A stretch of DNA of 64,000 nt. Origin: Ochrobactrum sp. RH2CCR150. Lineage in GTDB: Bacteria; Pseudomonadota; Alphaproteobacteria; Rhizobiales; Rhizobiaceae. The stretch's first letter is position 1. Each line of letters begins with the position of its first letter. The stretch lies in the NCBI GenBank assembly GCA_014138095.1, contig JACGXE010000014.1:1-64000 (forward strand), given 5' to 3'. The notes beneath the pieces were generated by a model, which was given only the letters and a program-made list of their open reading frames with translations, was not told the origin of the DNA and searched no databases. The translations under genes were made by a program, and so were the position numbers. Below are positions 2,604 to 19,186 of this stretch, one piece after another.

Positions 2604-2609
2604 AGCGAG

Positions 2610-3386
2610 ATGGCTGTACCTGAACCAACACATCGGGACGCTCTTGCCACAAAGACTTGGGACCCCCATGTGCTGGACAAAGCGATTGACGAACGCTTCG
2701 CTTATTGTCGCGGCAAAATGCTGCTCGCCTCTCCCGAAGAGAACGCAATAATTCCGTGCAGCGACCTGACCGATGCCGCCGTGTTCAGTGAAGTCATAGA
2801 GCGTTTCGCATCCTCATTTCCGGGTGGCGACCGTCGTGCCATAATTTCAATGTGGACGATGTATTATTTCAGCATCGTTTCCATCACGCCGACGGTGCTG
2901 CGGCTCGTTTGTGGAAAGCGGCTGCCTTTAAAATTGGATAGGACCGTTCTCGTCTGCAAACCTGCCAATGCTGCACCAACTGCACTCCTTCTCGACCACT
3001 CCGGCGACGACGCAAATGCTCCGGAGCGCACCTTCGATCTTCTCGCTTTGATGCGGGACCATATAGAACCATTGATTGAAGCCATTTGCACCAATGCAAA
3101 AGTAGCGCCAAAGCTCCTATGGAACAATGTCGCGGGCTATTACTCGTGGATTGTCGACGAAATCGGCACCCATGTAAATCCCGATCTCGGCCTTGCAGGA
3201 CGCGCGCTCCTTGATGAGCCGCTATGGCCTGACGGCGGAAAGAACCCGATGTATGGCATGATGCGCACCGCGCAACCGGCGTGCGGCAATGCCATCGTGC
3301 AGCGCAAGGTCTGCTGCTTGCGATATACTCTTCCGGGCGTGGCCGGCTGCGGGCAATTGTGCCCGCTGCCCAATGGTCGCCATTGA
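2610..3386 (+). CDS. fhuF: FhuF-like siderophore-iron reductase
   Basis: Probable cytoplasmic [2Fe-2S] protein that reduces ferric siderophore and releases Fe(II) after import. The 258-residue protein has a C-terminal Cys cluster VCCLRYTLPGVAGCGQLC. This matches the FhuF pattern Cys-Cys-X10-Cys followed by a fourth Cys; here the last two Cys are separated by three residues rather than the two I recall for E. coli FhuF. The gene begins 6 bp after the receptor stop codon, so translational coupling is likely, and it converges on the reductase gene ending at 3395 with only 8 bp between stops. Family assignment rests on the Cys cluster, length and context. Confidence 0.8.
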   Translation: MAVPEPTHRDALATKTWDPHVLDKAIDERFAYCRGKMLLASPEENAIIPCSDLTDAAVFSEVIERFASSFPGGDRRAIISMWTMYYFSIVSITPTVLRLVCGKRLPLKLDRTVLVCKPANAAPTALLLDHSGDDANAPERTFDLLALMRDHIEPLIEAICTNAKVAPKLLWNNVAGYYSWIVDEIGTHVNPDLGLAGRALLDEPLWPDGGKNPMYGMMRTAQPACGNAIVQRKVCCLRYTLPGVAGCGQLCPLPNGRH

Positions 3387-3394
3387 TCTTTGCC

Positions 3395-4120
3395 TCAGGC
3401 GAAATACTGACCGCCATTCACTGATAGCGTCGAGCCAGTGATGAAACCAGCCGCATCGGAAGCGAGGAACAATACGCAACGTGCAATCTCGTCTGGTGTC
3501 GCCAGACGGCCCGCAGGAATTTGCGGGAGAATGTGTTCGTTCATGACATTTTCAGGAACCCGCCTGACCATTTCCGTCCCGACGTAACCGGGACATACGG
3601 CATTGACCGTTATACCTTTCCCTGCGCCTTCCTGAGCCAGGGCTTTAGTAAACCCCAGATCTCCGGCCTTTGCAGCCGAGTAATTCACCTGTCCCATCTG
3701 ACCCTTCTGGCCATTGATGGACGAGATATTGATAACACGGCCGAAACTGCGGTCTCTCATTCCTTGCCAGATCGGGTGGGTCATATTGAAAAGACCACCG
3801 AGATTGGTGCTGATCACTTCATGCCATTCGCCCGGCGTCATTTTGTGAAACATCCGGTCGCGTGTAATGCCAGCATTGTTGACAAGAACGTTGATAGCAC
3901 CCAACTCTCCCTCAACCTTTTTGATTCCTTCTTCGCAGGCCGCATAATCGCAAACGTCCCATTGATATGTCGGGATGCCAGTGCTTTCAGAGAATGAAGC
4001 TGCAGCCTCTTTGTCACGGATATAGGTGGTGGCGACATTGTAGCCCGCCTCGTGCAGAGCCATCGATATGGCAGCTCCAATACCGCGAGTGCCTCCGGTT
4101 ACCAAAGCGACTTTACGCAT
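3395..4120 (-). CDS. phbB: Acetoacetyl-CoA reductase (PhbB/PhaB-type SDR)
   Basis: NADPH-dependent reductase expected to convert acetoacetyl-CoA to (R)-3-hydroxybutyryl-CoA. The 241-residue protein is a classical short-chain dehydrogenase: TGGTRGIG nucleotide-binding loop at residues 8-15, NNAG near 86, catalytic Ser of ISSINGQKG and the YSAAK Tyr/Lys pair near 153-157, and the substrate-binding VCPGYVGTEMV segment typical of PhaB. A GGAGAC ribosome site precedes the ATG. It is the last gene of a minus-strand unit (sigma factor, GNAT, FhuD, FhuB, this gene) and no PHB synthase is nearby. I infer that its product feeds siderophore assembly, since vicibactin contains (R)-3-hydroxybutyrate; a role in storage polymer cannot be excluded. 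Confidence 0.88.
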   Translation of the reverse strand: MRKVALVTGGTRGIGAAISMALHEAGYNVATTYIRDKEAAASFSESTGIPTYQWDVCDYAACEEGIKKVEGELGAINVLVNNAGITRDRMFHKMTPGEWHEVISTNLGGLFNMTHPIWQGMRDRSFGRVINISSINGQKGQMGQVNYSAAKAGDLGFTKALAQEGAGKGITVNAVCPGYVGTEMVRRVPENVMNEHILPQIPAGRLATPDEIARCVLFLASDAAGFITGSTLSVNGGQYFA

Positions 4121-4177
4121 TTCGTTGTCTCCAGATTGTTGTCAACTCGGATTTGTCAAAAACAGCCAGTTGTGAAC

Positions 4178-6169
4178 TCAGACTGAACGCCTGCGCTGCA
4201 ACAAAAGAACCAGCAATAGCGGCGTTCCGATCAATGCCGAAACAAGGCCAGCGGGAATCTGATAGGGAAAGGCGATCATGCGGCCAACCCAGTCGGCAAG
4301 AACCATCAGCCCGGCACCGGCCAGCGCAGCGCCAAGCACCTGCGGAATTGCACGACGCAAGCCAAGCTCGCGAGCGAAATGAGGCCCCATCAATCCAATG
4401 AAGCTCAGCGGCCCGACCACAAGCGTTGCCGCACTTGTCAGAAAAGCTGCCAGCATCAGCAGCGCCGAGCGTGCGAGCATCACATGAATACCCACCGATT
4501 GCGCTACCACAGGTCCGAGCGGCAACATGTCGAGCCATCGACGCATCAGCAGTGCCAGCAACAGACCTGCTACCCCGATTCCCGCAGCGATAAGCGCGAT
4601 CGGAGTTTCTATGAGATAGGTTGAACCACTCATCCATTGCAGCAAGGTGATGGCGCGTGGATCACCGCTGGCTGCGATGATCCCAACCGCTGCATCCAGC
4701 ATGGCGGTAAGCGCGATACCGGTCAGCAGGACTCGCTCCGGCGCAAAGCCCGAACGCAATCCAAGCACAATGATGATGACGAGTACAATCAATGCGCCAA
4801 TTGCAGCAAAGCCGATTTGCACAAACAAGCCCATGACGGGTAAGATAAATAACGCTACGGCCACGCCCATAGTGGCGCCGGCGGAGATACCGAGCACTTC
4901 CGGGCTCGCCATTTCATTTCCCGTCAACCGCTGGAGCAAGGTTCCCACCGTGCCCAACATCAGGCCCGCCGCAAAAGCGCCGATCACACGCGGAATGCGA
5001 TATGGTAAAATCTCGGACCACATACTGGTACCAGTGAATGCCCAATCACCGCCTGGATCACGCCCGAAGAAAATTGCCAACAATAATAGGGACAGCAACA
5101 CCAGACACACCAAAATCACCAGCCACGCCCTGGCAGCCATGACATGCTTCGGTCCTGCTGCAATGTCCGGCAAGCCGCGATGAACCGCTTTCAAACGGGG
5201 AACGAGCATCAGGAGTACCGGCGCTCCAAACAGAGCAGTGACGGCGCCGGTTGGAAGAAAGCTGGACGTCGTGCTTGTCAATACGAGCACCACTTCGTCG
5301 GTCAGAAACAATAGGCCTGCGCCAACGATTGGCGACCAGATAAGCTGGTTTTTTAGCGTGCGTGCGCCAGCAAGACGTGTGATTGCTGGTGCGACCAGAC
5401 CAACGAAACCAATGACACCAACGGCACTCGTCACCACGGCTGTTAACGCCACGGCGAGGCAAATGGCGGCAATACGTGTATGCTTGACCGAGAGACCAAG
5501 GCCACTCGCGCCACTGTCACCCAGCTCCATCAACGCAAGTGGACGCGCCAGTACGAAGATCGCCAAGAATAGAACAGCAACTTTCGGGATCAACGATAGT
5601 GGAATTGACCAGCTCTGCTGTGCCAGAGAACCCGCGCCCCATATGAACAGTCCCGACAAATAGCGGTCGTTCATCAAGATCAGAACGGAGGCCAACGCAC
5701 CGCACCACACACTGACAATCAAACCTGACAGAATAAGCGCAAAGGGCGAGAAATTCCGCCGCGCGCCGATAAGAAAAACCAATGCCGCCGCGATAGAACT
5801 ACCTATCAGTGCCACTGTGTCCCGGCTCAGACCTGCAAGCGAAGGAAAGGCCAGCATGGTGACTATAAGAGCCAGATTGGCTCCGGCCGAGATACCCAGC
5901 GTTGTTGGCGAAGCCAAAGGATTACGCAGTACCTGTTGCAATAACGTACCCGCAAGCGCCAGAGCCGCACCACCAATCAATGCGGTTACCAGACGTGGCA
6001 ATGTCGAGTAGGCCAGCACAATGTAACGCGGATCGTAATCCATACTCCGTTCGAATAATCTGCCGATGTCCGGGGCAATATTATGCCAAGCCAACAAGCC
6101 GCCAGCAAACAGCATTGCAATTGCAATGAACGGCGTGATGCCGCTTGACGATGGGCTGAGACGCGTCAT
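4178..6169 (-). CDS. fhuB: Fe(3+)-hydroxamate ABC transporter permease, fused double-length
   Basis: Inner-membrane permease for ferric hydroxamates. At 663 residues it is double the length of a single FecCD-type subunit and contains two homologous halves, each with about ten hydrophobic segments: the first half includes PRLVTALIGGAALALAGTLLQQ, the second repeats it as PRVIGAFAAGLMLGTVGTLLQR (shortened here to the matching cores RLVTALIGGAALA and RVIGAFAAGLMLG). Both halves carry the NPLASP/NEMASPE-LGISAGA motif. This tandem arrangement is that of FhuB. The start codon overlaps the stop of the binding-protein gene by 3 bp (ATGA). No FhuC ATPase gene is present in the window, so the ATPase must come from elsewhere. 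Confidence 0.92.
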   Translation of the reverse strand: MTRLSPSSSGITPFIAIAMLFAGGLLAWHNIAPDIGRLFERSMDYDPRYIVLAYSTLPRLVTALIGGAALALAGTLLQQVLRNPLASPTTLGISAGANLALIVTMLAFPSLAGLSRDTVALIGSSIAAALVFLIGARRNFSPFALILSGLIVSVWCGALASVLILMNDRYLSGLFIWGAGSLAQQSWSIPLSLIPKVAVLFLAIFVLARPLALMELGDSGASGLGLSVKHTRIAAICLAVALTAVVTSAVGVIGFVGLVAPAITRLAGARTLKNQLIWSPIVGAGLLFLTDEVVLVLTSTTSSFLPTGAVTALFGAPVLLMLVPRLKAVHRGLPDIAAGPKHVMAARAWLVILVCLVLLSLLLLAIFFGRDPGGDWAFTGTSMWSEILPYRIPRVIGAFAAGLMLGTVGTLLQRLTGNEMASPEVLGISAGATMGVAVALFILPVMGLFVQIGFAAIGALIVLVIIIVLGLRSGFAPERVLLTGIALTAMLDAAVGIIAASGDPRAITLLQWMSGSTYLIETPIALIAAGIGVAGLLLALLMRRWLDMLPLGPVVAQSVGIHVMLARSALLMLAAFLTSAATLVVGPLSFIGLMGPHFARELGLRRAIPQVLGAALAGAGLMVLADWVGRMIAFPYQIPAGLVSALIGTPLLLVLLLQRRRSV

Positions 6170-7077
6170 GCCGTGCGCTCCAGTGCATCAACCAGGAGAC
6201 CCGCAAAACGCAATGCCTCCACCACCATGCCAAACATCAGAACGCCGGGAAGAATTGTGTAGCCGCCAGCCTCGACAAAAGGCAATGAACTCCACAAAGG
6301 GCTCTCTTCCAGTCTTGTCATAATATCAGGCGGCGTCAGAGGTTCGAAGGCCACAAGTCGCATATTCTGGTCCATCAAGGCCAGTTGTTCGAGCCCAATG
6401 GTTTCGAAACCCCAATAGTTAGCAGAGCCAGTCCATGCATTTCTAAGACCTATGCGGCTCAAAACACTTTGATAGAGCCCGCCCCCGCCATAAATGCGAG
6501 CGTGACGCAAATCGACAAAGTTAACCAGTGCCAGTGACGGGGCCTTCAATTGTGCAATCCGCGCGGCATATTCATCAAATTGTCGATCGGCCTTTTCGAG
6601 AAAATCGCGCGCCTGCGCTTCGCGCCCAAGGGCCACGCCCAACGCCGATGTGGCCGCAATGGAACGAGACAAGGCATCCCCGCCTTCTGCATAGATCGTG
6701 AGTTCAAGCACAGGGCTGATGGCTTCCAGCTTCGGTTTCAGCGGCGCGAGAAACGGGGTCGTCAGAATGAGTGTCGGCTTGATACTCGCCAGAACTTCAA
6801 AATTGATTGCACTGGTGGATCCCAGATCGGCGATGCCCGACGGAAGCTCCGGCTCGACCACCCATTTGCTCCAGTCGGCTCGCCCTGCAATCGCCACTGG
6901 GACAACCCCGAATGCCAGCATGGTGGACACCAGTCCATAGTCCAGCGATACCACACGCTGCGCCGTCCGCTCGACATTCGCCAGCGCAGACGAACTGCTT
7001 GCCAGACAAATACCCGCCGCAGCCTGAAGAAGACTACGGCGTGTCAATAAAGAAAACGAAACAAATTCAGGCGTCAT
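6166..7077 (-). CDS. fhuD: Iron-hydroxamate periplasmic binding protein (FhuD-like)
   Basis: Periplasmic binding protein delivering ferric hydroxamate to FhuB. I place the start at the ATG at 7075-7077, giving about 303 residues, because it directly precedes a Tat-like signal peptide (TRRSLLQAAAGICLASS...SALA). An upstream in-frame ATG at 7254 would add 59 residues of unlikely sequence and overlap the neighbouring acetyltransferase gene. The mature part begins RVVSLDYGLVSTMLAFGV and contains PTLILTTPF, fitting the type III (TroA/FhuD) fold with a single long helix between lobes. Immediately upstream of, and overlapping, fhuB. Confidence 0.88.
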   Translation of the reverse strand: MTPEFVSFSLLTRRSLLQAAAGICLASSSSALANVERTAQRVVSLDYGLVSTMLAFGVVPVAIAGRADWSKWVVEPELPSGIADLGSTSAINFEVLASIKPTLILTTPFLAPLKPKLEAISPVLELTIYAEGGDALSRSIAATSALGVALGREAQARDFLEKADRQFDEYAARIAQLKAPSLALVNFVDLRHARIYGGGGLYQSVLSRIGLRNAWTGSANYWGFETIGLEQLALMDQNMRLVAFEPLTPPDIMTRLEESPLWSSLPFVEAGGYTILPGVLMFGMVVEALRFAGLLVDALERTA

Positions 7078-7120
7078 ATGACAACAGTTCTTGGAACAAT
7101 GGTTCGGCGATAAACAATCA

Positions 7121-7594
7121 TCAATGCGATGCATCCAGGGGTTTGACAAAGAAGAGGCATGGGTGGTCTTCATGCCACAGAGTAGGGAATGTCTCGGCCC
7201 TGATAAATCCGTTCTTGTCGTAAAAGGCGCGCGTTGCATCATACTGCGGCTCATTTTTGCCGCGTGGCGCGAGCGTCTTAACAGTTAGAAGCTGACAATT
7301 GGCTTCTCTCGCTGCGTTCTCAGCCGCAATCAGCAACCGCCTGCCAATTCCGGCGCGATGATGGGAACGCCGCGAAGCAATGACCAGTATTTCCATCGCC
7401 GACGGTGGATGTTGCTTCAGCGCGACGAACCCCACAATATCGCCGCCGTCCACGCAGCCGAACATCGGCAGTGTTTCAACCGCCTCCGCACAAGCCTCGA
7501 TCACCGCTGGTTCGCTGAACCAGTCAGATAACTCCGACATGATATCACGGCAAATCTGACCCTTGTTTTCACTTATCTCGATCGCATCATGCAT
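7121..7594 (-). CDS. GNAT-family N-acetyltransferase
   Basis: The 157-residue protein is a compact GNAT: central strand MEILVIASRR followed by the acetyl-CoA pyrophosphate loop HHRAGIGRRLL (about residues 76-90), and a final ATRAFYDKNGFIRAE motif. A GGGAG ribosome site sits just before the ATG at 7594. It lies between the sigma factor gene (16 bp away) and fhuD in a minus-strand unit. Vicibactin assembly needs an acetylation of the ornithine alpha-amine (VbsC in Rhizobium); this gene is the obvious local candidate by position, but sequence alone does not show the substrate. It could equally be an unrelated detoxifying or regulatory acetyltransferase. Confidence 0.85.
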   Translation of the reverse strand: MHDAIEISENKGQICRDIMSELSDWFSEPAVIEACAEAVETLPMFGCVDGGDIVGFVALKQHPPSAMEILVIASRRSHHRAGIGRRLLIAAENAAREANCQLLTVKTLAPRGKNEPQYDATRAFYDKNGFIRAETFPTLWHEDHPCLFFVKPLDASH

Positions 7595-7610
7595 AGATGG
7601 CTCCCGGCTC

Positions 7611-8168
7611 TCAGGCGTTTGTTCTGGGTTTCACCGGTGTTTTCCGCTCGTCATCCGACGCGATAGCCGCCACACAAAGCCGGTGCGCGTCTTTCAAAAG
7701 TCCGCAGACCAGCGCACAGGAAACTCCGGCGCGCTGGGCAATGACTTTCTGTGGAACCCCATCAAAATAATACTGCTCGTAGAATGCTCGCGTACGCGGC
7801 GGCATGACTTCCATGGCATGTCGAAAAGCTTCATAAGCCTGACATTCACGCACATGCTCTTCAGGGCTGCCATACTGCGACATACATCCGCTGGGTGGTT
7901 CTTCGACAAAAAGGGCTCTTTCGAATGCACGGCGCCGCAGATGATCAGTAGCGAGATTTTTCACCATCCGGGTAACATAGGAAGCTGGACGCGCCACCTC
8001 TGACCCTAGAGGCGTCGAGACAAGCTGCAGCATCACTTCCTGAACGATGTCTTCAGCTACTGTTGCACTGCCCGTGATACGCCGCGCAACGGCTAATAGC
8101 TTTCGGCGGATGAGAAGTGCTTCCTGAACCTGGCCATTCAACGTTGACTGTGAAAGATTGAGTGTCAT
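7611..8168 (-). CDS. ECF sigma factor, iron-starvation type (RpoI/PvdS/FecI-like)
   Basis: RNA polymerase sigma factor of the ECF class. The 185-residue form starts at ATG 8166-8168; in-frame ATGs at 8198 and 8249 could extend it. Region 2 is seen in AEDIVQEVMLQLVS...YVTRMVKNLATDHLRRR and region 4 in MPPRTRAFYEQYYFDGVPQKVIAQRAGVS (quoted here as LPP-type helix MPPRTRAFYEQ and HTH QKVIAQRAGVS). No FecR anti-sigma gene is adjacent, as with RpoI and PvdS, which directly switch on siderophore biosynthesis genes. It heads the unit containing GNAT, fhuD, fhuB and the reductase, so I infer it controls this siderophore island. Confidence 0.87.
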   Translation of the reverse strand: MTLNLSQSTLNGQVQEALLIRRKLLAVARRITGSATVAEDIVQEVMLQLVSTPLGSEVARPASYVTRMVKNLATDHLRRRAFERALFVEEPPSGCMSQYGSPEEHVRECQAYEAFRHAMEVMPPRTRAFYEQYYFDGVPQKVIAQRAGVSCALVCGLLKDAHRLCVAAIASDDERKTPVKPRTNA

Positions 8169-8297
8169 TTCTAGGCCCTTCGAAATCCAAATTTGCATTT
8201 CCCCGCCAAGTGACCGAAACAGCCTATAAAAGTGGAATATAATAATCAAGTTATATTTGATGTCATCTATCTGACTGTTTTAGCGGTGTTTATCCGG

Positions 8298-8999
8298 TTA
8301 AGGTGGTAAGTCGCTCATATTCCATTGCAATCTGCTTCCGCCGACATTTTTCTCGCAAGCTTCAGCTAGCGCCCAGAAATAGCGCGCTCCGGAGGCATCC
8401 AAAAATTGTCCTCCGTGAACCAATACCTGGGGCCACTCAGCCTGTAATGTCACGGAAGTTCCACACATATCCGGCGGGATGTTCACTTCTTTCGGATCGA
8501 CCTGAAAACCTTGCCCCCAACATTTCAGCACCGCTTCCTTCCGAACCCATGTAGACAGAAGCGCGTCATATCTCTGTGACCCGTCAAGTTGTGCAATGGC
8601 CCCTAACTCAACAGTGGATAACGTCAGTGAGGATGCCCCCTCAAGGTCGGCATAAAAATCGTTTCGGTCAGCTTCCACATCGATACCGATGTCCTCGTGA
8701 CAACTCGTCGCAAGCATCACGCAATTGGCATTGTGAGACAGGCTGAAGTGAATGCCACAGTCGGGCAAATAAGGCTTTCCTGCTGGATTGATCTCAAGTC
8801 GAATGTCCGACGGTGTTTGCCCGGTCATACATGCGATGACCGAGCGACAAAGCTGGCGCCCTGCAATAAAATGCTTGCGCCCGGAAACAGAGCGAAAGGC
8901 AGCGGCGCGCGCTTTTTCCTCCGGGCTCAAGACATCTGTATTGCAGACAGTATCATGTCTCAAATGCCAGCAATGAATGGCAATCTCGCTTTCACTCAT
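8298..8999 (-). CDS. 4'-phosphopantetheinyl transferase, Sfp type
   Basis: Activates the NRPS by attaching phosphopantetheine from CoA to the carrier-domain serine. The 233-residue protein shows the family motifs in order: GKPYLP (about 78), FSLSHN (about 87), GIDVE (about 105) with the metal-binding Asp and Glu, and WVRKEAVLKCWGQGF (about 150-164) with the WxxKEAxxK core. It starts 8 bp downstream of the ornithine hydroxylase stop, so it is the third gene of the NRPS-hydroxylase-transferase unit. It corresponds in role to VbsP of the rhizobial vicibactin system and to EntD/PcpS elsewhere. Confidence 0.92.
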   Translation of the reverse strand: MSESEIAIHCWHLRHDTVCNTDVLSPEEKARAAAFRSVSGRKHFIAGRQLCRSVIACMTGQTPSDIRLEINPAGKPYLPDCGIHFSLSHNANCVMLATSCHEDIGIDVEADRNDFYADLEGASSLTLSTVELGAIAQLDGSQRYDALLSTWVRKEAVLKCWGQGFQVDPKEVNIPPDMCGTSVTLQAEWPQVLVHGGQFLDASGARYFWALAEACEKNVGGSRLQWNMSDLPP

Positions 9000-9007
9000 C
9001 CGAGTGC

Positions 9008-10333
9008 TTATTCTGCAGCCTGAACAACTTCAACATCGCGCGAACGGAGTTCGCCACCCGTTTCGGCTTGCCATCGCACGATGGCATCTGGCGGGGTCAG
9101 ATCGAAATGCTGCCTTCCCAGAAGCGAGTTGGCGATTACCGCACTGCGCCAGGCTGCCAGACTGAGCTGCGGCTCTGCAATTCCGTGGCTGTGACGCCCA
9201 GCGTTCATGACGTATATTCTGTTCTTGTTCGGTCCATCCCAAACGAGCGAGAAGTCGCGCTCGAGAACCGGGTCACCCAGCGAATTCATTGCAAGAGGCG
9301 CATGCAAGGAGTTGAGAAATTCCGGCAGAACAAAACGATAGCCTGTCGCCAAAACGAGAGCGTCAACAGTTACCGTTTCTGTCGTCTGATCAAAACCGTT
9401 ATTCATGGTCAGATGTATTTCGCCATCGGCATAATCGGCGGCAACCACATCACGATACGGACAAAGCGAAATATCAGCTTCATGGCCCGCCGAATGCTCC
9501 AGTTTCCGTTCGTACAGCCGCCGGTAGAGCTTTTTGAGCGTCGAAGCCGATATGCCGTCGCTGGCCAGCATCTGGCGCTGGGTATGCGACAGACGCAGAG
9601 GCTCTGGCAACCCATGAAAACACCCCATATAGCCCGGGGTAAATAGTTCATTGGTGAATGGTGTCGCGTCCAATGGCTCAAAATTCGGCCTGCGGCTGAT
9701 CCAGTAAATGGAAGTGTCTGGATTTGCGTCAAGAAGCGCATCGACAATCTCTGCACCACTTTGCCCTCCACCAATCACAGCAATACGCCGGGCTTTCAAC
9801 GGGCCGAGCCTCTCGGCTGCGACGCTGTTGTGAAAGAATACTCGCTGGGGAAGGCTCGCCACCCAATCAGGCATAGAAGGTTGTTTGCCAACAGCCACAG
9901 ACAGGTTGCGCGTTTTGACCTCTTCACCATTGACCCGGACACTGAAGACGCTGTCATCAAAGCGCACATCTTCAACACGAGTGTCGAAATGCAGCGATTT
10001 CAATCCTGTCGCCACCCATTCGAGATATTTGGCGAATTCACGACGCGGCACGGCCTCATATTCAGCATTCAGGAATTGATAGAAGCGCTTGTGCTTGACC
10101 AGATAGGACAGAAAACTCCACGGACTCGTGGGATTCGTTCCCGTTACGAGGTCTTTCAAAAACGATGTCTGCATCTCCGCACCCGGTAGCAACATACCGG
10201 GATGCCACGCGAAAGCCGCTCGCTTGTCGAAAAAGCGCGCTTTAATGTCCGGTATGGAGTCCAATTGGGCCGCGAGACTGAGATTGAAAGGACCAATTCC
10301 GGCACCCACAAGGTCGAGCACTTCAGAGGACAT
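9008..10333 (-). CDS. vbsO: L-ornithine N5-monooxygenase (siderophore hydroxylase)
   Basis: FAD- and NADPH-dependent hydroxylase that makes N5-hydroxyornithine, the first step of hydroxamate formation. The ATG at 10331-10333 is chosen because AGGAGA precedes it; the longer reading from 10405 adds 24 poor residues. The 441-residue form has the FAD loop GAGIGPFNLSLAAQL (residues 9-23), the FAWHPGMLLPG segment, the NADPH loop GGGQSGAEIVDALL (about 200) and the C-terminal LATGYRF motif. Members act on ornithine (PvdA, VbsO) or lysine (IucD, RhbE); ornithine is preferred here because no aerobactin-type synthetase is present and an NRPS is. The symbol is by analogy. Confidence 0.88.
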   Translation of the reverse strand: MSSEVLDLVGAGIGPFNLSLAAQLDSIPDIKARFFDKRAAFAWHPGMLLPGAEMQTSFLKDLVTGTNPTSPWSFLSYLVKHKRFYQFLNAEYEAVPRREFAKYLEWVATGLKSLHFDTRVEDVRFDDSVFSVRVNGEEVKTRNLSVAVGKQPSMPDWVASLPQRVFFHNSVAAERLGPLKARRIAVIGGGQSGAEIVDALLDANPDTSIYWISRRPNFEPLDATPFTNELFTPGYMGCFHGLPEPLRLSHTQRQMLASDGISASTLKKLYRRLYERKLEHSAGHEADISLCPYRDVVAADYADGEIHLTMNNGFDQTTETVTVDALVLATGYRFVLPEFLNSLHAPLAMNSLGDPVLERDFSLVWDGPNKNRIYVMNAGRHSHGIAEPQLSLAAWRSAVIANSLLGRQHFDLTPPDAIVRWQAETGGELRSRDVEVVQAAE

Positions 10334-10443
10334 GATGTTTCTCCTGTTAGGCAGTTTGCGAAACGCCGGGAGGACAGCCTGCTTCGCGAAACTGCAGCAC
10401 GACAAACGCGCAAGGTTTGACTAAAGCCGAGTGACACAGCCAC

Positions 10444-13400
10444 TCAAACGAGTTCGTTAGTCCTATGCAATTTGCTGACCAGCGCTTCATCGAGTCTACG
10501 CGCAAAACGCTGGTGAAAGGGAGATTTACCGATAATCGTCAGATGGTTGGTGCCATTGACGATCTCGGGTGCCGTTGCCCGGGACGAATATCGGCGCCAG
10601 TCGATGACATTGAGCGATCGAGTTAAAGAATCCTCCGCCGCAAAAGCGTGAATGCGGAAATCACTTTGCGAAAGCTTGTAGTTACGGAAGATCATCGCAT
10701 TATCGACGAGAACCCAGAACGTATGTTCCTCAGAGCCAATGTCTGGTCCGTCGACAGGCAGAACCACATCGTGTTTCACCACATGACTGAGAAACTGCTC
10801 GTAGATTTCACTGTCCATCGCTGCGAATAGCCTCTGCCAGTCATCGCGCATTGGCGCTACCGTCAGCCATTCCTGTACGCGACGGTGGGTTCGGTCACGA
10901 ACACTCTCCTCAAAGCGGGGCAGAATTCCAACAGTGAACTCCTCGTCCATATCGCAGACGTCCACCATACCAATCATGCGCAGATCGATATCGCTTCCAA
11001 GCTGCTGCGCTGCCTCATAGGCAAGCAACCCACCCCACGACCAACCAAGAAAAGCACAAGGCCTGCCCTTGGCCAGGCTCCTGACTTCCTCGGCGTAACG
11101 TGCGGTGATGTCCTCCACCCTTGTGCTCAGCGTTTTGGTTTCGCTGAGCGAATAACAAATGAACCCCGTGGCTGGTTGATCGGGGCCCAGATAATCCACG
11201 AGACGCATATATTCGCGCGTGCTCACCAGCAGTCCCGGAAAACAGTAGAGTACAGGGCGGTCGCCACTGCGGCGCAGATAAATGACGTTGACGCCAGTGT
11301 CATCACGCGCGCCGTCGAGCGCTGCAGCAAGATCACGCACTGTTGGATGGTTGAACATATCTGCAATTGTCAGCGGCCAATCTGGATAATGCGTCTTGAG
11401 CCGTGACACGATGCGAACCGCCGCAAGGGATTGCCCGCCAATATCGAAAAAGTTCTCCGTAACGCCAACATCCGGTATGTCCAGTACGTCGCGCCAGACA
11501 GTCAGAATGTCTCGCTCACGGTCATTTTCCGGTGCAATGGTTTCACGCTCTAAATACGGCGCTGGAAGGGCGGCACGATCCAGCTTGCTGTTTGGCCCCA
11601 TCGGCAATTTATCGATCAGCATGATCGTCTGCGGAACCATATAATCCGGTAGCGCAACCATGGCAGCGCGGCGCAATTCAGTGACACTGACACTTTCGCC
11701 CTCGCGCGGCTCGACATAGGCAACCAGTGACGAGCGGGCACCGTCATGATGCAGCAGGACCACAGTTTCAGCAATGCGTGGATCAGCGCTTAAGACCGCT
11801 TCAATCTCACCCGGCTCGATACGGTAACCGCGTAGCTTGATCTGATGATCGACCCGACCGGCAAACTCGACAATGCCGTCCTCACGCCATCGGCCGAGAT
11901 CGCCGGATTTATACATTCGACCCGCGCCTGACGCGAAAGGATCAGGAATGAACCGCTCTTCCGTCAGATCCGGGCGTCCCTGATAACCACGGGCAAGGCC
12001 GCTGCCGCCAATATGAATCTCGCCGACGACACCGACCGGAACCGGGGCCAGATCCTCATCAAGAATGTAAATTCTGCGATCACCAACCCCTCGCCCGATT
12101 GGTGCCACAGTGCCCTCAAAGCGAGTTCCCAACGGAATCTTCCAGATCATGGGCGTCATGATGGTTTCTGTCGGGCCATAACCATTGATGAGGAGCGGAG
12201 CCTGAAGATTATCGTTGATCATATCGAAGACGGCGCGCGGCAGTGCCTCGCCGCCAAATGAATACAACCGCAATCCCGGTATATCAGGATGCTCGCTCGC
12301 ATACTCGGCCAGCCCGCGCACATAACTTGTCGGTAAGCTGGCATTATTGACACCGTGCTTGCGCATCAGCGCGAAAGCCTCGTCCGGGGTTGCAAGCTTG
12401 TCGGATGTCAGAATTACGCCGCCGCCAGCCATCAGCGGCACCATCCAGCGTTCGTGCCCACCATCGGATGTGAACGGTAAGACCGGATATTCACATGATT
12501 CCTCGCTCATCTCGTAAATGCGCAAAGTGGCCTTGCAGTGATGCGCCAGCGGACCCTGTTCGACGGCCACACCTTTCGGTACCCCGGTTGAACCCGATGT
12601 GTAGATGACATAGGCAAGCTGATCCGGCCTAATTGTCGATGTCGGTGGCTTGTCGCTTTCCAGCGACAGGTCTATCCCATCAATATCCAGTTTCGGCACA
12701 ACGACATCCTGCGGAAGACTTTCGCGGAAGCGTTTGCGCGTGATAACCAGCGAAAGGCCCGGCGCAGAAAGAATATGCCGGTTGCGGGCTTCAGGGTGAT
12801 CCGGCTCAACGGGCGTGAACGCCCCTCCGGCTTTCATAACCGCCAGAATCGCTACGATGGCATCAATGGATTTATCGAGCGCCACCGCCACACGTTTTTC
12901 CGGCCCGATCCCCAAGGCAATCAGATGATGGGCAAGGCGATTGGCTGAAGCCTCCAACTCACCATGGGTGACGGAGCGGTCACCTTGTGCAACCGCAAAC
13001 GCGTCAGGCCGTCGCGATGCCTGTGCCGCGATGACTTCATGCACTGGCACACCGTCATCCTGCTGCGGTTGGTCAGGATATGGCGCGGACAACCGTTCCA
13101 GTTCCGCTTGCGAAACAAACGGGGTATTTCGAATAAGTGGAGTCGGGGCGCTACCCAGATGGTCAAGAGCAATTTTCAGATCATCGGCAAACCGCGCCAC
13201 ATGCCTGAGGGACTGCTTTTGCGGATCGAAGCCAAAGGTTATTTTGAAACTACCATCGCTTCCGGGACGTACAGTCATCACCAGTTCAGCATCGCGGCGC
13301 GCTGGCGGTTCGATGATGACGCGCGTGGACGTGTCGTCGAGAGAGTATGCCGATCGCAGATCGAGAATGGTTCTGGCGAGCGCCGTGGTTTCGAAGCTTT

Positions 13401-14400
13401 CGTCCCGGCGTAGCAGGCTATCGGCCAGTGTTTCGAACGGAATAAAATTTTGTCGAGAGGCAGCAATCTCCCGTTCGAAATGCTGTCCCGTCTCCTGAAA
13501 TGTCATGCTGCCATTGATTTCGCCGACGACAATCAGAATGTCTTCGGTTCTCATCGCCACACCGGCAGCCGTCGCCCTGGTAGCCAAGCCGATCCGTTGC
13601 GTCCCAGAGCCCGAATAACGCCGCAGTACCACGGCCAAGCCGGTCAACAGATCAGTTTCAAGCCTCCCTTTCGATACCGAACTATCCAGCCGAACCCGTG
13701 TTTCTATTTCCGTCCAACTGCCCGGCTCAGACCCTTCAGGCATTACCGGAGTGAGAACCGCGATATTCTCCTGCCCTCCGAGACGATCAAACCAGAAATC
13801 GACCTTGTCGGCCGTGGGCGTGCGCGCTGCATCTTGCTTGAAAGACCATGATGTGGACGGAGCCTTTACGGTCTCACCAGAACCTGTTCGTAAGGATCTG
13901 GTAAAATCTTCGGCCAGTTGTCCCAGTGTTGCGCTGTCAGCAACAATTGCATGAAGGGAGAACAGCACTCCAACGGCCTTGTCTCCGCGTTTGAATAAGT
14001 AGAACCGCGCAGGATTTTCCTGCTCGAGATCGATGTGCCGGTCGCGTTCCGAGCGCGCCACAGCCCGCACCACATCATCAGTATCAGCACCGTCTGCCAC
14101 TTGGTGCTCGACAATGTCGAACCCGCCGGCGTCAGGTACATGCTGATAAACCACACCGCCCGGCTTGAGCTCAAATCGACGCGTGATGAGCGGGTGTCTC
14201 GCGCACAACTGCGCTAATCTTTTTGCGGCAAAATCTGCGTCTATATCGACCAGGGCCAGCCCCAGCATCTGGCGACCATAAATGCTTTCATTTCCGATAG
14301 CCGACAATAGCCAGATGCGCGACTGTGTCGATGACAGCGGCCACTCAGATGCAATCTGATGATTGCTATTCAATTCAATTATTTTACGGTCGATATTCAT
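10444..14400 (-). CDS. vbsS: Single-module NRPS, C-A-T-TE (VbsS-like siderophore synthetase)
   Basis: Non-ribosomal peptide synthetase of 1318 residues. Domains in order: condensation-like (about 15-440), adenylation (about 455-945), carrier (about 955-1030) and thioesterase (about 1045-1318). Adenylation motifs are clear: IYTSGSTGVPKG (599-610), NGYGPTE (739-745), KSGDLGRW (831-838), KLRGYRIEPGEIE (855-867), NSKLDRAALP. The carrier site is DIGGQSL with Ser991, and the thioesterase nucleophile is Ser1121 in GWSWGG. The condensation active site reads HAIVADS (150-156), lacking the second His of HHxxxDG. A single module with a terminal TE suits iterative cyclo-oligomerisation of one monomer, as for vicibactin. 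The ATG is preceded by AGGATG; downstream lie hydroxylase and transferase genes. Confidence 0.92.
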   Translation of the reverse strand: MNIDRKIIELNSNHQIASEWPLSSTQSRIWLLSAIGNESIYGRQMLGLALVDIDADFAAKRLAQLCARHPLITRRFELKPGGVVYQHVPDAGGFDIVEHQVADGADTDDVVRAVARSERDRHIDLEQENPARFYLFKRGDKAVGVLFSLHAIVADSATLGQLAEDFTRSLRTGSGETVKAPSTSWSFKQDAARTPTADKVDFWFDRLGGQENIAVLTPVMPEGSEPGSWTEIETRVRLDSSVSKGRLETDLLTGLAVVLRRYSGSGTQRIGLATRATAAGVAMRTEDILIVVGEINGSMTFQETGQHFEREIAASRQNFIPFETLADSLLRRDESFETTALARTILDLRSAYSLDDTSTRVIIEPPARRDAELVMTVRPGSDGSFKITFGFDPQKQSLRHVARFADDLKIALDHLGSAPTPLIRNTPFVSQAELERLSAPYPDQPQQDDGVPVHEVIAAQASRRPDAFAVAQGDRSVTHGELEASANRLAHHLIALGIGPEKRVAVALDKSIDAIVAILAVMKAGGAFTPVEPDHPEARNRHILSAPGLSLVITRKRFRESLPQDVVVPKLDIDGIDLSLESDKPPTSTIRPDQLAYVIYTSGSTGVPKGVAVEQGPLAHHCKATLRIYEMSEESCEYPVLPFTSDGGHERWMVPLMAGGGVILTSDKLATPDEAFALMRKHGVNNASLPTSYVRGLAEYASEHPDIPGLRLYSFGGEALPRAVFDMINDNLQAPLLINGYGPTETIMTPMIWKIPLGTRFEGTVAPIGRGVGDRRIYILDEDLAPVPVGVVGEIHIGGSGLARGYQGRPDLTEERFIPDPFASGAGRMYKSGDLGRWREDGIVEFAGRVDHQIKLRGYRIEPGEIEAVLSADPRIAETVVLLHHDGARSSLVAYVEPREGESVSVTELRRAAMVALPDYMVPQTIMLIDKLPMGPNSKLDRAALPAPYLERETIAPENDRERDILTVWRDVLDIPDVGVTENFFDIGGQSLAAVRIVSRLKTHYPDWPLTIADMFNHPTVRDLAAALDGARDDTGVNVIYLRRSGDRPVLYCFPGLLVSTREYMRLVDYLGPDQPATGFICYSLSETKTLSTRVEDITARYAEEVRSLAKGRPCAFLGWSWGGLLAYEAAQQLGSDIDLRMIGMVDVCDMDEEFTVGILPRFEESVRDRTHRRVQEWLTVAPMRDDWQRLFAAMDSEIYEQFLSHVVKHDVVLPVDGPDIGSEEHTFWVLVDNAMIFRNYKLSQSDFRIHAFAAEDSLTRSLNVIDWRRYSSRATAPEIVNGTNHLTIIGKSPFHQRFARRLDEALVSKLHRTNELV

Positions 14401-14704
14401 ATTGTTTTCATCCTAAGATAAAACAAAAGATATTCTCATCAGAATGATTCTCTGGAGAAATAATTCAATTTTCCAATCATTTTTTGATCAACACTTGATG
14501 AAAGTCACATGCTATATTCTCCATTGCTTTCCTGATGTTCGATAGACGAATGAGATAAATGAAAATTCAAATTTTTTATTCGTAAAAATTTCCATCTTTT
14601 CTCTGAATTTATTGATCGCTCAATCGTCTCTTTGGAGAACTAATCACAGACGACCAATTCGTCGTCATGGGCGACGCGCCAATTGAATTCCTGATGTTGG
14701 AGAA
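14401..14704. promoter_or_regulatory. Divergent siderophore promoter region with overlapping dyads
   Basis: AT-rich 304-bp gap between the divergently transcribed NRPS and acyltransferase genes. Near the NRPS start it has two overlapping inverted repeats that share one arm: ATTCT (14432-14436), AGAAT (14441-14445), ATTCT (14447-14451). The geometry recalls overlapping Fur-family dyads. The word TATTCTCATCA (14431-14441) recurs exactly at 34785-34795, upstream of the second siderophore receptor. I infer an iron-responsive or sigma-dependent control site; the actual regulator (Fur/Mur, RirA, Irr or ECF sigma) cannot be told from the sequence. Confidence 0.5.
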
Positions 14705-15874
14705 ATGACGATGGATACATCGCCAGCAAGAGAATATTCCTTCTACATGGGAGGCGAGAGCAGCATGCGACTGCGCCTGCCAGCATCGGGCTTCACCAGC
14801 CATGCGAGCGCAGTTGATACTCGAACGCCGACGCTCTTTGGACATGTTACAGCGACTGCAAATAGCTTCAGCGTAAAGCGCAACGATGAGAATATTGCCG
14901 CGGGCGCATTCTCATTTGCGAGCAGCCCTAATCTTGATTTCGAGACCTTGCCACCAGCATCCACAGAGGTTAAAAGCGCAGTTCTTGCTGTACTGGAAGC
15001 GCTTTTTACATGCCACCCGGATCTGCCTTGCGTAAAGCTGACCCTACCTGCTTACTATGACGCCACAAACCTTCTAGCTATAGGTGCGCTGGAACAGAGC
15101 GAGGATGGATTCACCTCCCGCCCGGAACTCCTTTTCCAGCTCGCACAACTTTGGCTTGGAGAGCCCCATCATAGCTATCCAGCTGTATCAACGATAACCA
15201 AAGGTATTCACCACCCGGTACGCCCGCCGAAGCCGCACGGCACCGTCTATCGGCGCCATATTCCCTGGATCGACAAGGTCCTGTCCTTTCACGTAGCCAA
15301 TCTGGAAAGCGATCTGGAGCATTTTCATCGCTGGATGAATGATCCCCGTGTTTCTGCAATTTGGGAGGACCAGGGCAGCCTCGATTATCACCGCGATTTC
15401 CTCAATGGACGGCTGACTGATCCGCGTACACTACCCCTAATAGGGACTTTTGACGGCATCCCCTTCGGGTATTTCGAGCTTTACTGGGCAAAGGAAGACC
15501 GGCTTGGTCCCTATTATGAGGCGGACCCATATGATCGGGGCTGGCATGTTGCGATTGGCGAAGACGCCTTTCGCGGCAAGGCTTTCGTCAGTGCCTGGCT
15601 ACCTTCCCTGATGCACTACATGTTTCTCGCGGATTCTCGAACAAGCCGGATCGTCGGAGAACCTGTCCATCATCATCAGCAGCAAATCCGTAATCTCGAC
15701 AGGTCCGGCTTTGCCAAAATCAAGCATGTCCAGTTTCCCCATAAGAAGGCGCTCCTGGTCATGTTGTTGCGCGAACGCTTTTTTGCAGACCGACTGCTAT
15801 CTCCCGACCTCGGTAGCCTGATCGATGAGCAGGGACAGCCGGTTATTGGCTCCTTGTCCCGCGATGCGGGTTGA
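14705..15874 (+). CDS. vbsA: IucB/VbsA-like hydroxyornithine acyltransferase
   Basis: Predicted acyl-CoA transferase that acylates the N5-hydroxyl-amine of hydroxyornithine. The 389-residue protein has a variable N-terminal half and a C-terminal siderophore-type GNAT domain (about 200-375) with the typical run WEDQGSLDYHRDFL, PFGYFELYWAKEDRLGPYY, GWHVAIGEDAFRGKAF and the late FPHKKALLVMLLRERFF. These are the hallmarks of the IucB/RhbD/VbsA acyltransferase family. In the vicibactin pathway VbsA uses (R)-3-hydroxybutyryl-CoA; the acetoacetyl-CoA reductase gene in the same island supports that donor. ATG at 14705 follows GGAGA closely; the next ATG at 14711 is better spaced and may be the true start. 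Its stop overlaps the region of the next gene. Confidence 0.88.
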   Translation: MTMDTSPAREYSFYMGGESSMRLRLPASGFTSHASAVDTRTPTLFGHVTATANSFSVKRNDENIAAGAFSFASSPNLDFETLPPASTEVKSAVLAVLEALFTCHPDLPCVKLTLPAYYDATNLLAIGALEQSEDGFTSRPELLFQLAQLWLGEPHHSYPAVSTITKGIHHPVRPPKPHGTVYRRHIPWIDKVLSFHVANLESDLEHFHRWMNDPRVSAIWEDQGSLDYHRDFLNGRLTDPRTLPLIGTFDGIPFGYFELYWAKEDRLGPYYEADPYDRGWHVAIGEDAFRGKAFVSAWLPSLMHYMFLADSRTSRIVGEPVHHHQQQIRNLDRSGFAKIKHVQFPHKKALLVMLLRERFFADRLLSPDLGSLIDEQGQPVIGSLSRDAG

Positions 15875-15924
15875 ACGCCGGAAACGAACATCCGCGACCC
15901 AATTTCTGCTTTGCGAGGATAATC

Positions 15925-17106
15925 ATGAACGAAACGCCGAAATTCGATGACCAGCACACAATTATTCCAAACAGTTTTACTTCCATACGCGACGACCCGT
16001 TCGACGCTGCCGTGCCGCCTATCTACCAGACATCCCTGTTTTTGTTCGACAACTATGCAGAACTGGAAGCGGTCTTCGCAGGCCGGTCGCCAAAGCCCAT
16101 TTATTCGCGCGGCGACAACCCAACGGTTCGCCTGCTTGAACAGCGGATTGCGGAAATGGAGGGTGCCGAAGATGCGCGCGCCTTTTCCAGTGGTATGGGC
16201 GCAATCGCGGCAACGATCCTCGCCTTTGTCAATCCCGGCGACCGTATTGTGACCGTCCGCCACGTCTATAGCGATGCGTTCCGTTTCTTTGAAAAAGTGC
16301 TGAAGCGCTTCGGCGTTCATGTCGAGTACATTGATGGTAGAGATACCGAGCGTATGATCGAAGCGCTGCCTGGTGCGCGTCTGGCTTATCTCGAAAGCCC
16401 CACATCAATGGTTTTTGAGCTGCAGGATCTGCAAACCATCGCGGAAGCTGCCCGCAAAAATGGCGTTCTGACAATCGTCGATAATTCCTGGGCGACCCCT
16501 CTTTTCCAGAATCCTCTGGCAATCGGCATTGATCTCGTCATCCACGCCGCTTCCAAATATTTGGGGGGGCAGAGCGATACGGTCGCCGGACTGGTCGCCG
16601 GACCGCGCGCACTGATTGATCGCGTCAACGCGGAAATCTTTCCCTATACCGGCGCAAAGCTGGCACCGTTTGAAGCATGGTTGGTGCTGCGCAATCTCGA
16701 AACACTTCCCCTGCGGATGCGTCATCATCATGAGGCTGGCTTAGAAGTTGCGCAATGGCTGCAAGCCTCGAGCACGATCGCTAACGTTATGCATCCGGCT
16801 TTCACGGACCATCCCGGCAGAAATAGTCTTTCCGGCTTTGGTGGCCTGTTTTCCTTCGAGGTGACAGATGCGGTGGATATTCCCACCTTCGTCGATGCGC
16901 TGAAAATCATTCGTATCGGGGTAAGCTGGGGCGGCCCTGAAAGTCTGGTTGTTCCAGCAAAAGCCGCACTCAGCATTTCGCCCGAAACCAATGTCTTCGC
17001 ACGCTTTGGTGTCAGCGAACGCACCATCCGATTGAACGTTGGTCTTCACAAAGCACAGGATCTCATCGAAGATCTCGATCAGGCACTGAAAGCGGCTAAT
17101 CGTTGA
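15925..17106 (+). CDS. vbsL: PLP-dependent Cys/Met-metabolism-family enzyme (VbsL-like)
   Basis: Fold type I PLP enzyme of the cystathionine gamma-synthase/O-acetylhomoserine sulfhydrylase family, about 393 residues from the ATG at 15925, which has GAGGA at good distance; an upstream TTG at 15871 overlapping the previous stop is less likely. The PLP lysine is in SKYLGGQSD (Lys211 in this numbering), the cofactor-phosphate region is SSGMGAI, and the PLP-ring Asp is in IVDNSW. It directly follows the acyltransferase gene on the same strand. As I recall, the rhizobial vicibactin enzyme VbsL is a PLP-dependent epimerase giving the D-ornithine unit; the NRPS here has no epimerisation domain, so that role is plausible. 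A sulfur-amino-acid role remains an alternative. Confidence 0.82.
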   Translation: MNETPKFDDQHTIIPNSFTSIRDDPFDAAVPPIYQTSLFLFDNYAELEAVFAGRSPKPIYSRGDNPTVRLLEQRIAEMEGAEDARAFSSGMGAIAATILAFVNPGDRIVTVRHVYSDAFRFFEKVLKRFGVHVEYIDGRDTERMIEALPGARLAYLESPTSMVFELQDLQTIAEAARKNGVLTIVDNSWATPLFQNPLAIGIDLVIHAASKYLGGQSDTVAGLVAGPRALIDRVNAEIFPYTGAKLAPFEAWLVLRNLETLPLRMRHHHEAGLEVAQWLQASSTIANVMHPAFTDHPGRNSLSGFGGLFSFEVTDAVDIPTFVDALKIIRIGVSWGGPESLVVPAKAALSISPETNVFARFGVSERTIRLNVGLHKAQDLIEDLDQALKAANR

Positions 17107-17195
17107 TCGACTGCTGGTTCCCCGATAAGGATGCCATATTTGCATAGCCACCAATGCACATCGGTCGCTAAGCAAGTCCAAGACCGAGATTGCGC

Positions 17196-18825: not shown

Positions 18826-19186
18826 TTTTACGCCCCCATTATTTTCAAATGCATATAACTGCGTAAGTCGATATCGGCAGAGCCTCTGACGTCTCGGATC
18901 CAGATGCAGCGTTTACCGCGTGTATTGAGGGCCCGGGACGGCAGGATACGTCGAAAAGTTCAACTTAGAGAGCAGGCATTTCGTTGCATTCACATATGAT
19001 ATCTTTTAAGCTTCAAGAAAATTCATATCAAGCTTTTTAAAGAAGCGATTGAGGGGGACGTCCATGCCACAGAATTCATCGTTGGACTTCAGGGAACAGG
19101 CTTGTCGACACTCGCACTGATGACGAAGGAATCGATAAAGTTTGGCGTGCGCTGGACAGCGTCCAATTTCAGGGGAGCGACGACAC
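18826..19186. promoter_or_regulatory. Divergent intergenic region between two FAD oxidoreductase genes
   Basis: About 360 bp with no convincing gene. It must contain the promoters of both divergent oxidoreductase genes. It holds two AAGCTT words facing each other across 17 bp (19008-19036 area), flanked by TTTAA on both sides, and a GCATAT word (18850-18856) that also occurs in the dyad at 20941-20956. A GGGGAG ribosome site for the rightward gene lies about 10 bp before 19187. Confidence 0.4.

What the first reader, a model, noticed from the sequence alone, without database searches (positions are those of the whole stretch)
2610..17106. Vicibactin-type siderophore locus outside the classical vbs arrangement
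The set matches what a vicibactin-like cyclic trihydroxamate needs: ornithine hydroxylase, 3-hydroxybutyryl-type acyltransferase, PLP epimerase candidate, one-module C-A-T-TE synthetase, Sfp-type activator, plus a PhbB-type reductase that could supply (R)-3-hydroxybutyryl-CoA. Fhu-type uptake, reductase and receptor are interleaved. The gene order differs from the rhizobial vbsGSO/vbsADL pattern as I recall it, and the reductase inside a transport operon is unusual. Seen: the genes and domains. Known: the vicibactin pathway. Inferred: the product.
Basis: partly seen in the sequence, partly recalled or inferred. Interest (0 to 1): 0.72.

Follow-up and report, generated by a model that had tools for sequence, protein, structure and literature searches.

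The report
Vicibactin-type siderophore locus with own reductase
This is an intact set of genes that most likely makes and re-imports a vicibactin-like iron-scavenging molecule in a relative of Ochrobactrum and Brucella, and it carries its own enzyme that probably supplies the hydroxybutyrate building block in a bacterium in which no plastic-storage synthase was found.

Summary
Window 420-17106 holds an intact vicibactin-type locus. The VbsS adenylation code (DGESSGGMTK) is identical in 37 of 37 VbsS compared, R. johnstonii 3841 included. The layout is not unique: it belongs to a second, MbtH-less kind of vbs locus (34 loci tabulated, mostly Rhizobium; 3 of 35 genomes of the window's genus, Brucella including former Ochrobactrum). 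Most interesting is the reductase. It scores like Rhizobium PHB-operon PhaB, is the only one of 78 matches in its genome over the acetoacetyl-CoA reductase cut-off, and sits after fhuB in four Rhizobium loci too, in a clade apart from PHB-operon phaB (87/80, moderate). No PHA synthase domain was found in the genome, so this enzyme is the likely source of (R)-3-hydroxybutyryl-CoA. vbsG, vbsD and fhuC are missing from the locus. The product is inferred. A new variant of a known kind; moderate interest.

The parts
420..2603 (+). FhuA-type TonB-dependent hydroxamate receptor
   Evidence: 66% to the receptor of the R. johnstonii 3841 vbs locus; barrel and plug; under the cut-off of every specific receptor model, as is the 3841 receptor
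2610..3386 (+). FhuF siderophore-iron reductase
   Evidence: TIGR03951 169 bits, cut-off 63.85; 52% to 3841 FhuF
3395..4120 (-). PhaB-type reductase, proposed supplier of (R)-3-hydroxybutyryl-CoA
   Evidence: TIGR01829 357.4 bits, cut-off 302.1, same pattern of models passed and failed as three thiolase-linked Rhizobium phaB; clade apart from those; dN/dS 0.037
4178..6169 (-). FhuB, two-domain ferric hydroxamate permease
   Evidence: NF007866 770.5 bits, cut-off 554
6166..7077 (-). FhuD, periplasmic binding protein (start moved)
   Evidence: NF007864 188.8 bits, below its 252 cut-off; ATG at 7077 read; 61% to the R. tropici locus FhuD
7121..7594 (-).
   Evidence: 67% over 149 aa to the S. meliloti Ak57 and 60% over 153 aa to the 3841 counterpart; PF00583
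7611..8249 (-). ECF sigma factor in the place of RpoI
   Evidence: Sigma70_r2; 58% to the R. tropici locus sigma, 29.5% to the 3841 one
8298..8999 (-). VbsP, Sfp-type phosphopantetheinyl transferase
   Evidence: ACPS and AASDHPPT_N; 33% over 151 aa to the 3841 one
9008..10405 (-). VbsO, ornithine N5-hydroxylase
   Evidence: Lys_Orn_oxgnase 378 bits; 49% to 3841 VbsO; both have one and the same best NCBIfam model, far under its cut-off
10444..14400 (-). VbsS, one-module C-A-T-TE synthetase
   Evidence: domains; 44% to 3841 VbsS, 69% to the R. tropici group; adenylation code identical in 37 of 37
14401..14704 (.). divergent region between vbsS and vbsA, presumed promoters
   Evidence: position only
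14705..15874 (+). VbsA, N5-hydroxyornithine acyltransferase
   Evidence: PF13523 182 bits; 64% over 226 aa to 3841 VbsA
15871..17106 (+). VbsL, PLP-dependent acyl-hydroxyornithine epimerase
   Evidence: 54% to 3841 VbsL; on the vbsL side of a tree against the chromosomal paralogue, 100/100

Best explanation
The locus makes, and takes back up, a vicibactin-type cyclic trihydroxamate. VbsO hydroxylates L-ornithine at N5. VbsA adds (R)-3-hydroxybutyrate from its CoA ester. VbsL turns the alpha carbon to D. VbsC acetylates N2. VbsS, primed by VbsP, activates the unit, joins three by ester bonds and releases the ring. The last gene of the same series, a PhaB-type reductase, reduces acetoacetyl-CoA to the (R)-3-hydroxybutyryl-CoA that VbsA needs, so the host does not need PHB metabolism for this precursor. 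FhuA, FhuD, FhuB and FhuF bring the ferric siderophore in and free the iron; an ATPase from elsewhere in the genome probably energises FhuB; the ECF sigma factor presumably switches the genes on. Shown here: genes, homology, code, trees, no PhaC_N domain found and no other reductase over the cut-off. Inferred: each reaction, the product, the role of the reductase, regulation and the ATPase.
For: Counterparts of all tailoring enzymes of the 3841 locus (the vbs names of the 3841 genes are mine, from annotation and recall). Adenylation code the same in 37 of 37 VbsS. VbsL tree 100/100. Passages seen: VbsO uses L-ornithine (PMC7347517); VbsL is the acyl-hydroxyornithine epimerase and the marker in antiSMASH (PMC12971057); vbsC encodes an acetylase for vicibactin (PMC10510648); FhuA is the vicibactin receptor (PMC3836376). 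Reductase: only 1 of 78 matches in its genome passes TIGR01829; it passes and fails the same models as three thiolase-linked Rhizobium phaB; no PhaC_N in its genome and none in 34 of 35 genomes of the genus, own included; of the 14 genomes of other families, a reductase at 1e-60 or better is in 9 of 9 with PhaC_N and 0 of 5 without, and in 0 of the 20 other same-genus genomes of that call; G030, with the intact locus, has it. Same place after fhuB in four Rhizobium loci, clade 87/80, dN/dS 0.037 beside VbsL 0.036 and FhuA 0.039.
Against: No product is shown. vbsD and vbsG are missing at the locus; the nearest match to a Rhizobium VbsD in the genome is 22% and no MbtH was found. fhuC is not in the locus. 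Sigma and VbsP are only 29.5% and 33% like the 3841 proteins. The reductase also passes two models named 3-oxoacyl-ACP reductase (NF009464, NF009466) and fails the strict PhaB equivalog NF042966 (208 of 436 bits), although true phaB do likewise. In the four Rhizobium carriers it coexists with a second, phaB-type copy, and 24 of the 28 other loci of the scan lack it. Clade support is not starred. The relative G016 keeps the biosynthetic genes but has lost the reductase. Other SDRs (77 further matches) could supply some substrate. NCBIfam cannot tell VbsL from its paralogue: the paralogue scores higher on the shared model.
Confidence: 0.75

Rival explanations
1. Vicibactin-type locus as above, but the reductase is a passenger: a phaB copy that moved into the operon and does not serve the siderophore; 3-hydroxybutyryl-CoA comes from FabG-like or fatty-acid enzymes.
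For: 24 of the 28 other loci of the scan lack it; Rhizobium carriers also have phaB; 77 further SDR matches in the genome; it passes two models named 3-oxoacyl-ACP reductase; G016 lost it but keeps the biosynthetic genes.
Against: Kept in the same operon place in two genera and under strong purifying selection; the only one over the acetoacetyl-CoA reductase cut-off in a genome without PhaC_N.
Confidence: 0.2
2. The locus makes a different hydroxamate: an ornithine trimer with another acyl group, or without the N2-acetyl group.
For: VbsS is 44% and VbsA 64% (over 226 aa) identical to the classical proteins; acyl preference cannot be read from sequence.
Against: Identical adenylation code, a VbsC homologue, and a locus reductase that matches a C4, acetoacetyl-CoA, model.
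Confidence: 0.15
3. The locus is decaying and makes no siderophore: exporter, MbtH and FhuC are gone, as in the sister genome with a truncated fhuB.
For: vbsD, vbsG and fhuC missing; in G016 a transposase-like stretch follows a truncated fhuB, and neither the reductase nor a FhuA better than 39% was found.
Against: The 12 window genes are open and under purifying selection between two species; 0 of 34 loci of this kind have vbsG and 8 of 34 lack vbsD.
Confidence: 0.08

Closest known systems
Classical vbs locus (vicibactin), here Rhizobium johnstonii 3841 pRL12
   Same: Counterparts of VbsS, O, A, L, C, P, ECF sigma, FhuA, FhuF; identical adenylation code
   Different: Window has no vbsG (MbtH) and no vbsD (MATE); sigma, vbsC, fhuD and fhuB follow vbsSOP in line; added reductase; VbsS 44% identical
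R. [quoted passage not shown] 11515TR clusters (reported in print as vbs-like and as predicted vicibactin)
   Same: vbsS-O-P-sigma-C-...-fhuD-fhuB in line, divergent vbsA...vbsL, no vbsG; VbsS 69% identical
   Different: Those two have fhuC, vbsD and a decarboxylase gene and lack reductase and fhuF; the window is the reverse on each
R. rhizogenes-type loci (R. rhizogenes NBRC 13257 and OV677, Rhizobium sp. BK602 and ICMP 5592)
   Same: Reductase after fhuB on the same strand, 74-76% identical
   Different: Have fhuC, vbsD and the decarboxylase gene, no vbsP match at the locus, and PhaC_N plus a second reductase elsewhere
PhaB acetoacetyl-CoA reductase of PHB operons
   Same: Same NCBIfam pattern as three thiolase-linked Rhizobium phaB; 73-76% identical to the phaB-type copies
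   Different: Separate clade (87/80), neighbours are fhuB and fhuF, genome without PhaC_N

Membership tests
Vicibactin (vbs) biosynthesis | One-module C-A-T-TE VbsS with the adenylation code of a classical VbsS | tested here: met
   code the same in 37 of 37; positions placed by hand from recalled PheA numbering
Vicibactin (vbs) biosynthesis | VbsO, VbsA and VbsC tailoring enzymes | tested here: met
   49%, 64% (226 aa) and 60% (153 aa) to the 3841 counterparts; homology, not activity
Vicibactin (vbs) biosynthesis | VbsL epimerase, the marker used by antiSMASH | tested here: met
   on the vbsL side, 100/100, with long-branch warnings; the antiSMASH model was not run
Vicibactin (vbs) biosynthesis | Phosphopantetheinyl transferase and ECF sigma factor at the locus | tested here: met
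   low identity (33%, 29.5%) to 3841
Classical (3841-type) vbs layout | vbsG (MbtH) beside vbsS | tested here: not met
   none at the locus, none found in the genome; the 3841 plasmid rang as control
Classical (3841-type) vbs layout | vbsD (MATE) between vbsA and vbsL | tested here: not met
   no room between vbsA and vbsL; best match elsewhere 22%
Vicibactin (vbs) biosynthesis | Product is the cyclic trimer with (R)-3-hydroxybutyrate and N2-acetyl-D-ornithine | not testable with these tools
   needs mass spectrometry and hydrolysis; the structure is recalled
R. tropici-type vbs layout | VbsS clade, vbsSOP-sigma-vbsC in line, no vbsG | tested here: met
R. tropici-type vbs layout | fhuC, vbsD and decarboxylase gene at the locus | tested here: not met
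   0 of 3 same-genus loci have any of the three
PhaB acetoacetyl-CoA reductase | Score over curated models | tested here: inconclusive
   passes TIGR01829, fails equivalogs NF042966 and NF009546, passes two 3-oxoacyl-ACP reductase subfamily models; three thiolase-linked Rhizobium phaB do exactly the same
PhaB acetoacetyl-CoA reductase | Reduces acetoacetyl-CoA to the (R) product | not testable with these tools
   enzyme assay needed
PHB operon | phaA and phaC partners | tested here: not met
   neighbours are fhuF and fhuB; no PhaC_N in the genome

The most novel reading that the evidence does not exclude
A self-sufficient vicibactin cassette: a phaB duplicate was recruited once into a vbs operon and specialised in supplying (R)-3-hydroxybutyryl-CoA, which lets the locus work in a lineage without PHB synthesis (Brucella/Ochrobactrum), with a VbsS clade that needs no MbtH partner.
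Probability: 0.5. Interest if true: 0.55.

Novelty: new variant of a known kind. Interest (0 to 1): 0.42.

Why it matters
It would show how a siderophore pathway whose acyl group can come from plastic-storage metabolism becomes portable by carrying the supplying enzyme. It would also place a hydroxamate system in a genus for which the catecholate brucebactin is in print (a reference title seen), and give a natural pair of VbsS clades with one adenylation code, with and without an MbtH gene, for testing what MbtH partners do.

Tried and rejected
Considered and set aside: (1) A plain Cys/Met-metabolism role for the PLP enzyme: a 50-55%-identical paralogue is in 20 of 35 same-genus genomes at 1e-100 and scores higher on the shared NCBIfam model, so identity could not decide; the tree did, but it flags long branches. 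(2) The reductase as FabG: it fails TIGR01830 and the FabG equivalogs listed, but passes two 3-oxoacyl-ACP reductase subfamily models; control phaB behave the same, so the models do not exclude FabG-like activity. (3) 'vbsC is absent': my first reading of the ORF list, wrong. (4) FhuC across the contig end: the window starts at base 1 of contig C14; the best FhuC-like stretch (59%, inside a 641-aa open frame) lies near the start of C20 beside another Fhu gene set; adjacency cannot be shown. (5) TGA-N9-TCA sites at 276 and 356 before fhuA: 12 such sites in 19.2 kb, so no evidence. (6) Megablast against plasmids: 44 records, each with a 200-base NRPS match. (7) Literature in the held library: 'vicibactin' with 'Ochrobactrum' gives 1 paper, with 'Brucella' 9. 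Of the 9, passages of 6 were seen (PMC3836376, PMC3557214, PMC10510648, PMC12971057, PMC8776678, PMC8822346) and none of those passages speaks of a vbs locus in that genus; PMC4145622, PMC5863699 (also the one Ochrobactrum paper) and PMC6386902 were seen in listings only. Heemstra 2009 is not held and Carter 2002 was not looked up; what is said of them comes from citing papers or recall. (8) No structure was predicted; thiolase supply of acetoacetyl-CoA was not tested; L121 and L122 were fetched and not analysed.
Full report
What is there. Between 420 and 17106 the window holds twelve open genes. On the minus strand, in the direction of transcription, run vbsS, vbsO, vbsP, an ECF sigma factor, a vbsC homologue, fhuD, fhuB and a PhaB-type reductase, with gaps of at most 57 bases by the listed starts, so one operon is likely (inference). 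On the plus strand lie vbsA and vbsL, overlapping by four bases by the listed start of vbsL and divergent from vbsS, and at the other end fhuA and fhuF. The vbsC homologue was not in the finding.

Where it comes from. The window starts at base 1 of contig C14 (109,978 bases) of a 5.54-Mb genome. So the genus is Brucella in the broad sense that takes in Ochrobactrum; that taxonomists did so is from the abstract start of PMC8954888 in a listing. The species was not identified. A full-length VbsS is in 3 of 35 same-genus genomes, own included, and a VbsL of 93% or more in the same three. The block is collinear with G030 from 259 to 17110; next to it, no flank is shared with the 60 kb fetched from G030 or the 60 kb from G016, except that window 31247-41994 matches a stretch of G030 on the other side of its locus.

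Is it a vicibactin pathway? Against R. johnstonii 3841 (L022; the record names families, the vbs names are mine from annotation and recall): VbsS 44%, VbsO 49%, VbsA 64% over 226 aa, VbsL 54%, VbsC 60%, FhuA 66%, FhuF 52%, VbsP 33% over 151 aa, sigma 29.5%. Only the NRPS was searched against a collection; the others were compared with a small reference set. The ten-residue adenylation code, placed by hand on recalled PheA positions, is DGESSGGMTK in 37 of 37 VbsS. In the 11 rows printed there the condensation motif lacks the first His of HHxxxDG, and the TE motifs GWSWGG and GTNH are kept. VbsL needed care because of a chromosomal paralogue in 20 of 35 same-genus genomes: a tree of 23 rows puts the window with 16 other vbsL rows and the six chromosomal copies on the other side, 100/100, with long-branch warnings. 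NCBIfam names are of no help here: the 3841 VbsO and receptor have the same best, sub-threshold models as the window's. From passages seen: VbsO hydroxylates L-ornithine (PMC7347517), VbsL epimerises acyl-hydroxyornithine (PMC12971057), vbsC encodes a vicibactin acetylase (PMC10510648), FhuA is the receptor (PMC3836376). Trimerisation by VbsS is recalled and alluded to in PMC8776678.

Two kinds of locus. The scan of named genomes with an alignment of this VbsS kind returned 30 loci, 2 of the window's genus and 28 others (20 named Rhizobium, the rest Allorhizobium, Ensifer, Sinorhizobium or unnamed 'Rhizobiales'). With the window and three plasmid loci, 34 were tabulated (about 10 kb on each side, so an absence near an end is unsure). 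vbsG is in 0 of 34, though the same comparison found it in the classical loci L022, L025 and L026. vbsD is missing in 8 of 34, vbsC in 5, fhuC in 9, vbsP in 6, the decarboxylase gene in 8; fhuF is seen in 2 and the reductase in 6 (window, L055, L061, L072, L073, L077). That R. tropici CIAT 899 has a hydroxamate cluster with vbs-like genes is in print (PMC3557214, passage), and vicibactin was predicted for Rhizobium sp. 11515TR (PMC6256449, passage). In the VbsS tree (quick method) the three proteins of the window's genus form one clade (100) in an unresolved fork with a 28-row clade of Rhizobium and others, a Sinorhizobium pair and Allorhizobium.

MbtH. PF03621 was sought in 12 genomes or records: found in the 3841 plasmid (positive control) and in G066, not in the other 10, among them G000, G016 and G030. 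VbsS of this kind therefore probably works without an MbtH partner (inference).

The reductase. It scores 357.4 bits on the acetoacetyl-CoA reductase model TIGR01829 (cut-off 302.1) and 261 on the FabG model TIGR01830 (cut-off 297.75). It also passes two models named 3-oxoacyl-ACP reductase (NF009464, NF009466) and fails the PhaB equivalog NF042966; three phaB genes of Rhizobium-type genomes that lie beside a thiolase (L101, L108, L110) pass and fail the same models. So the models make it a PhaB-like enzyme but do not exclude other 3-oxoacyl substrates. The first nine of 45 solved-structure matches are called acetoacetyl-CoA reductase. In its genome 78 places match TIGR01829 and only this one passes. 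PhaC_N was not found in the genome nor in 34 of 35 genomes of the genus, G033 being the exception (a few of these genomes are incomplete). It was found in 28 of the 28 other carriers of this kind of VbsS and in neither L055 nor L056. Of the 14 genomes of other families, a reductase at 1e-60 or better is in the 9 with PhaC_N and in none of the 5 without; of the 20 other same-genus genomes there, G016 included, none has it; G030 has it at 95%. So this enzyme type otherwise tracks PHB synthesis, and in the window's genome and G030 it tracks vbs instead. In a tree of 25 rows (21 different; four are second fetches of the same genes, so six distinct vbs-linked proteins) the vbs-linked reductases are one side of a branch, 87/80, not starred. 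Of the 15 rows called phaB there, 4 were checked for a thiolase neighbour and 4 have one. Between window and G030 the reductase has dN/dS 0.037; with VbsL 0.036 and FhuA 0.039 it is the lowest of 12. Against a need: Rhizobium carriers have a second copy as well, and 24 of the 28 other loci lack it.

Gaps. No exporter was found: the best match to a Rhizobium VbsD in G000 is 22%. fhuC is not in the locus; the best candidate is a 59%-identical stretch on C20 beside another Fhu gene set. G016 shows decay: a transposase-like stretch follows a truncated fhuB (read by eye, no family search), the reductase was not found in that genome at 1e-60, and its best FhuA is 39%. I described this and mended nothing.

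Verdict. A real, intact vicibactin-type locus of a second kind, with a reductase that most likely supplies its acyl group. The pathway is known. The self-supplied version in a lineage without a PHA synthase domain was not met in the passages and listings seen from the held library. Interest is moderate.

Noticed in passing
window 31248-41944: MFS transporter, TonB-dependent receptor, an unsearched 319-aa frame, aconitase B and two citrate synthases side by side; 10.7 kb is 88.6% identical in G030 (L029 4857-15604) on the same contig as its vbs locus but on the other side of it. Possibly a citrate-based iron island.
   Followed up: partly
L028 about 4200-5630: In G016 (the B. haematophila record) a transposase-like stretch, judged by eye, follows a truncated fhuB; the reductase and a vbs-type FhuA were not found in that genome.
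   Followed up: partly
L062, L066, L069, L070, L076: Loci of this kind without a vbsC match at the locus; the products may lack the N2-acetyl group.
   Followed up: no
L061, L072, L073, L077: The four Rhizobium loci with the reductase have no vbsP match at the locus.
   Followed up: no
L021 10823-12097, L023 10605-11849: A decarboxylase of the Orn/DAP/Arg family (annotated lysA in L021) lies near vbsL in 26 of 34 loci and is absent from the window; role unknown.
   Followed up: no
G000 C2:371872-373608: A second NRPS in the window's genome (1393-aa open frame, 35% to VbsS over residues 465-1039), perhaps a catecholate synthetase; not examined.
   Followed up: no
window 17233-20776: Two divergent CrtI/CrtO-like FAD oxidoreductases next to vbsL, under the cut-offs of the 25 best families listed for each.
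   Followed up: no
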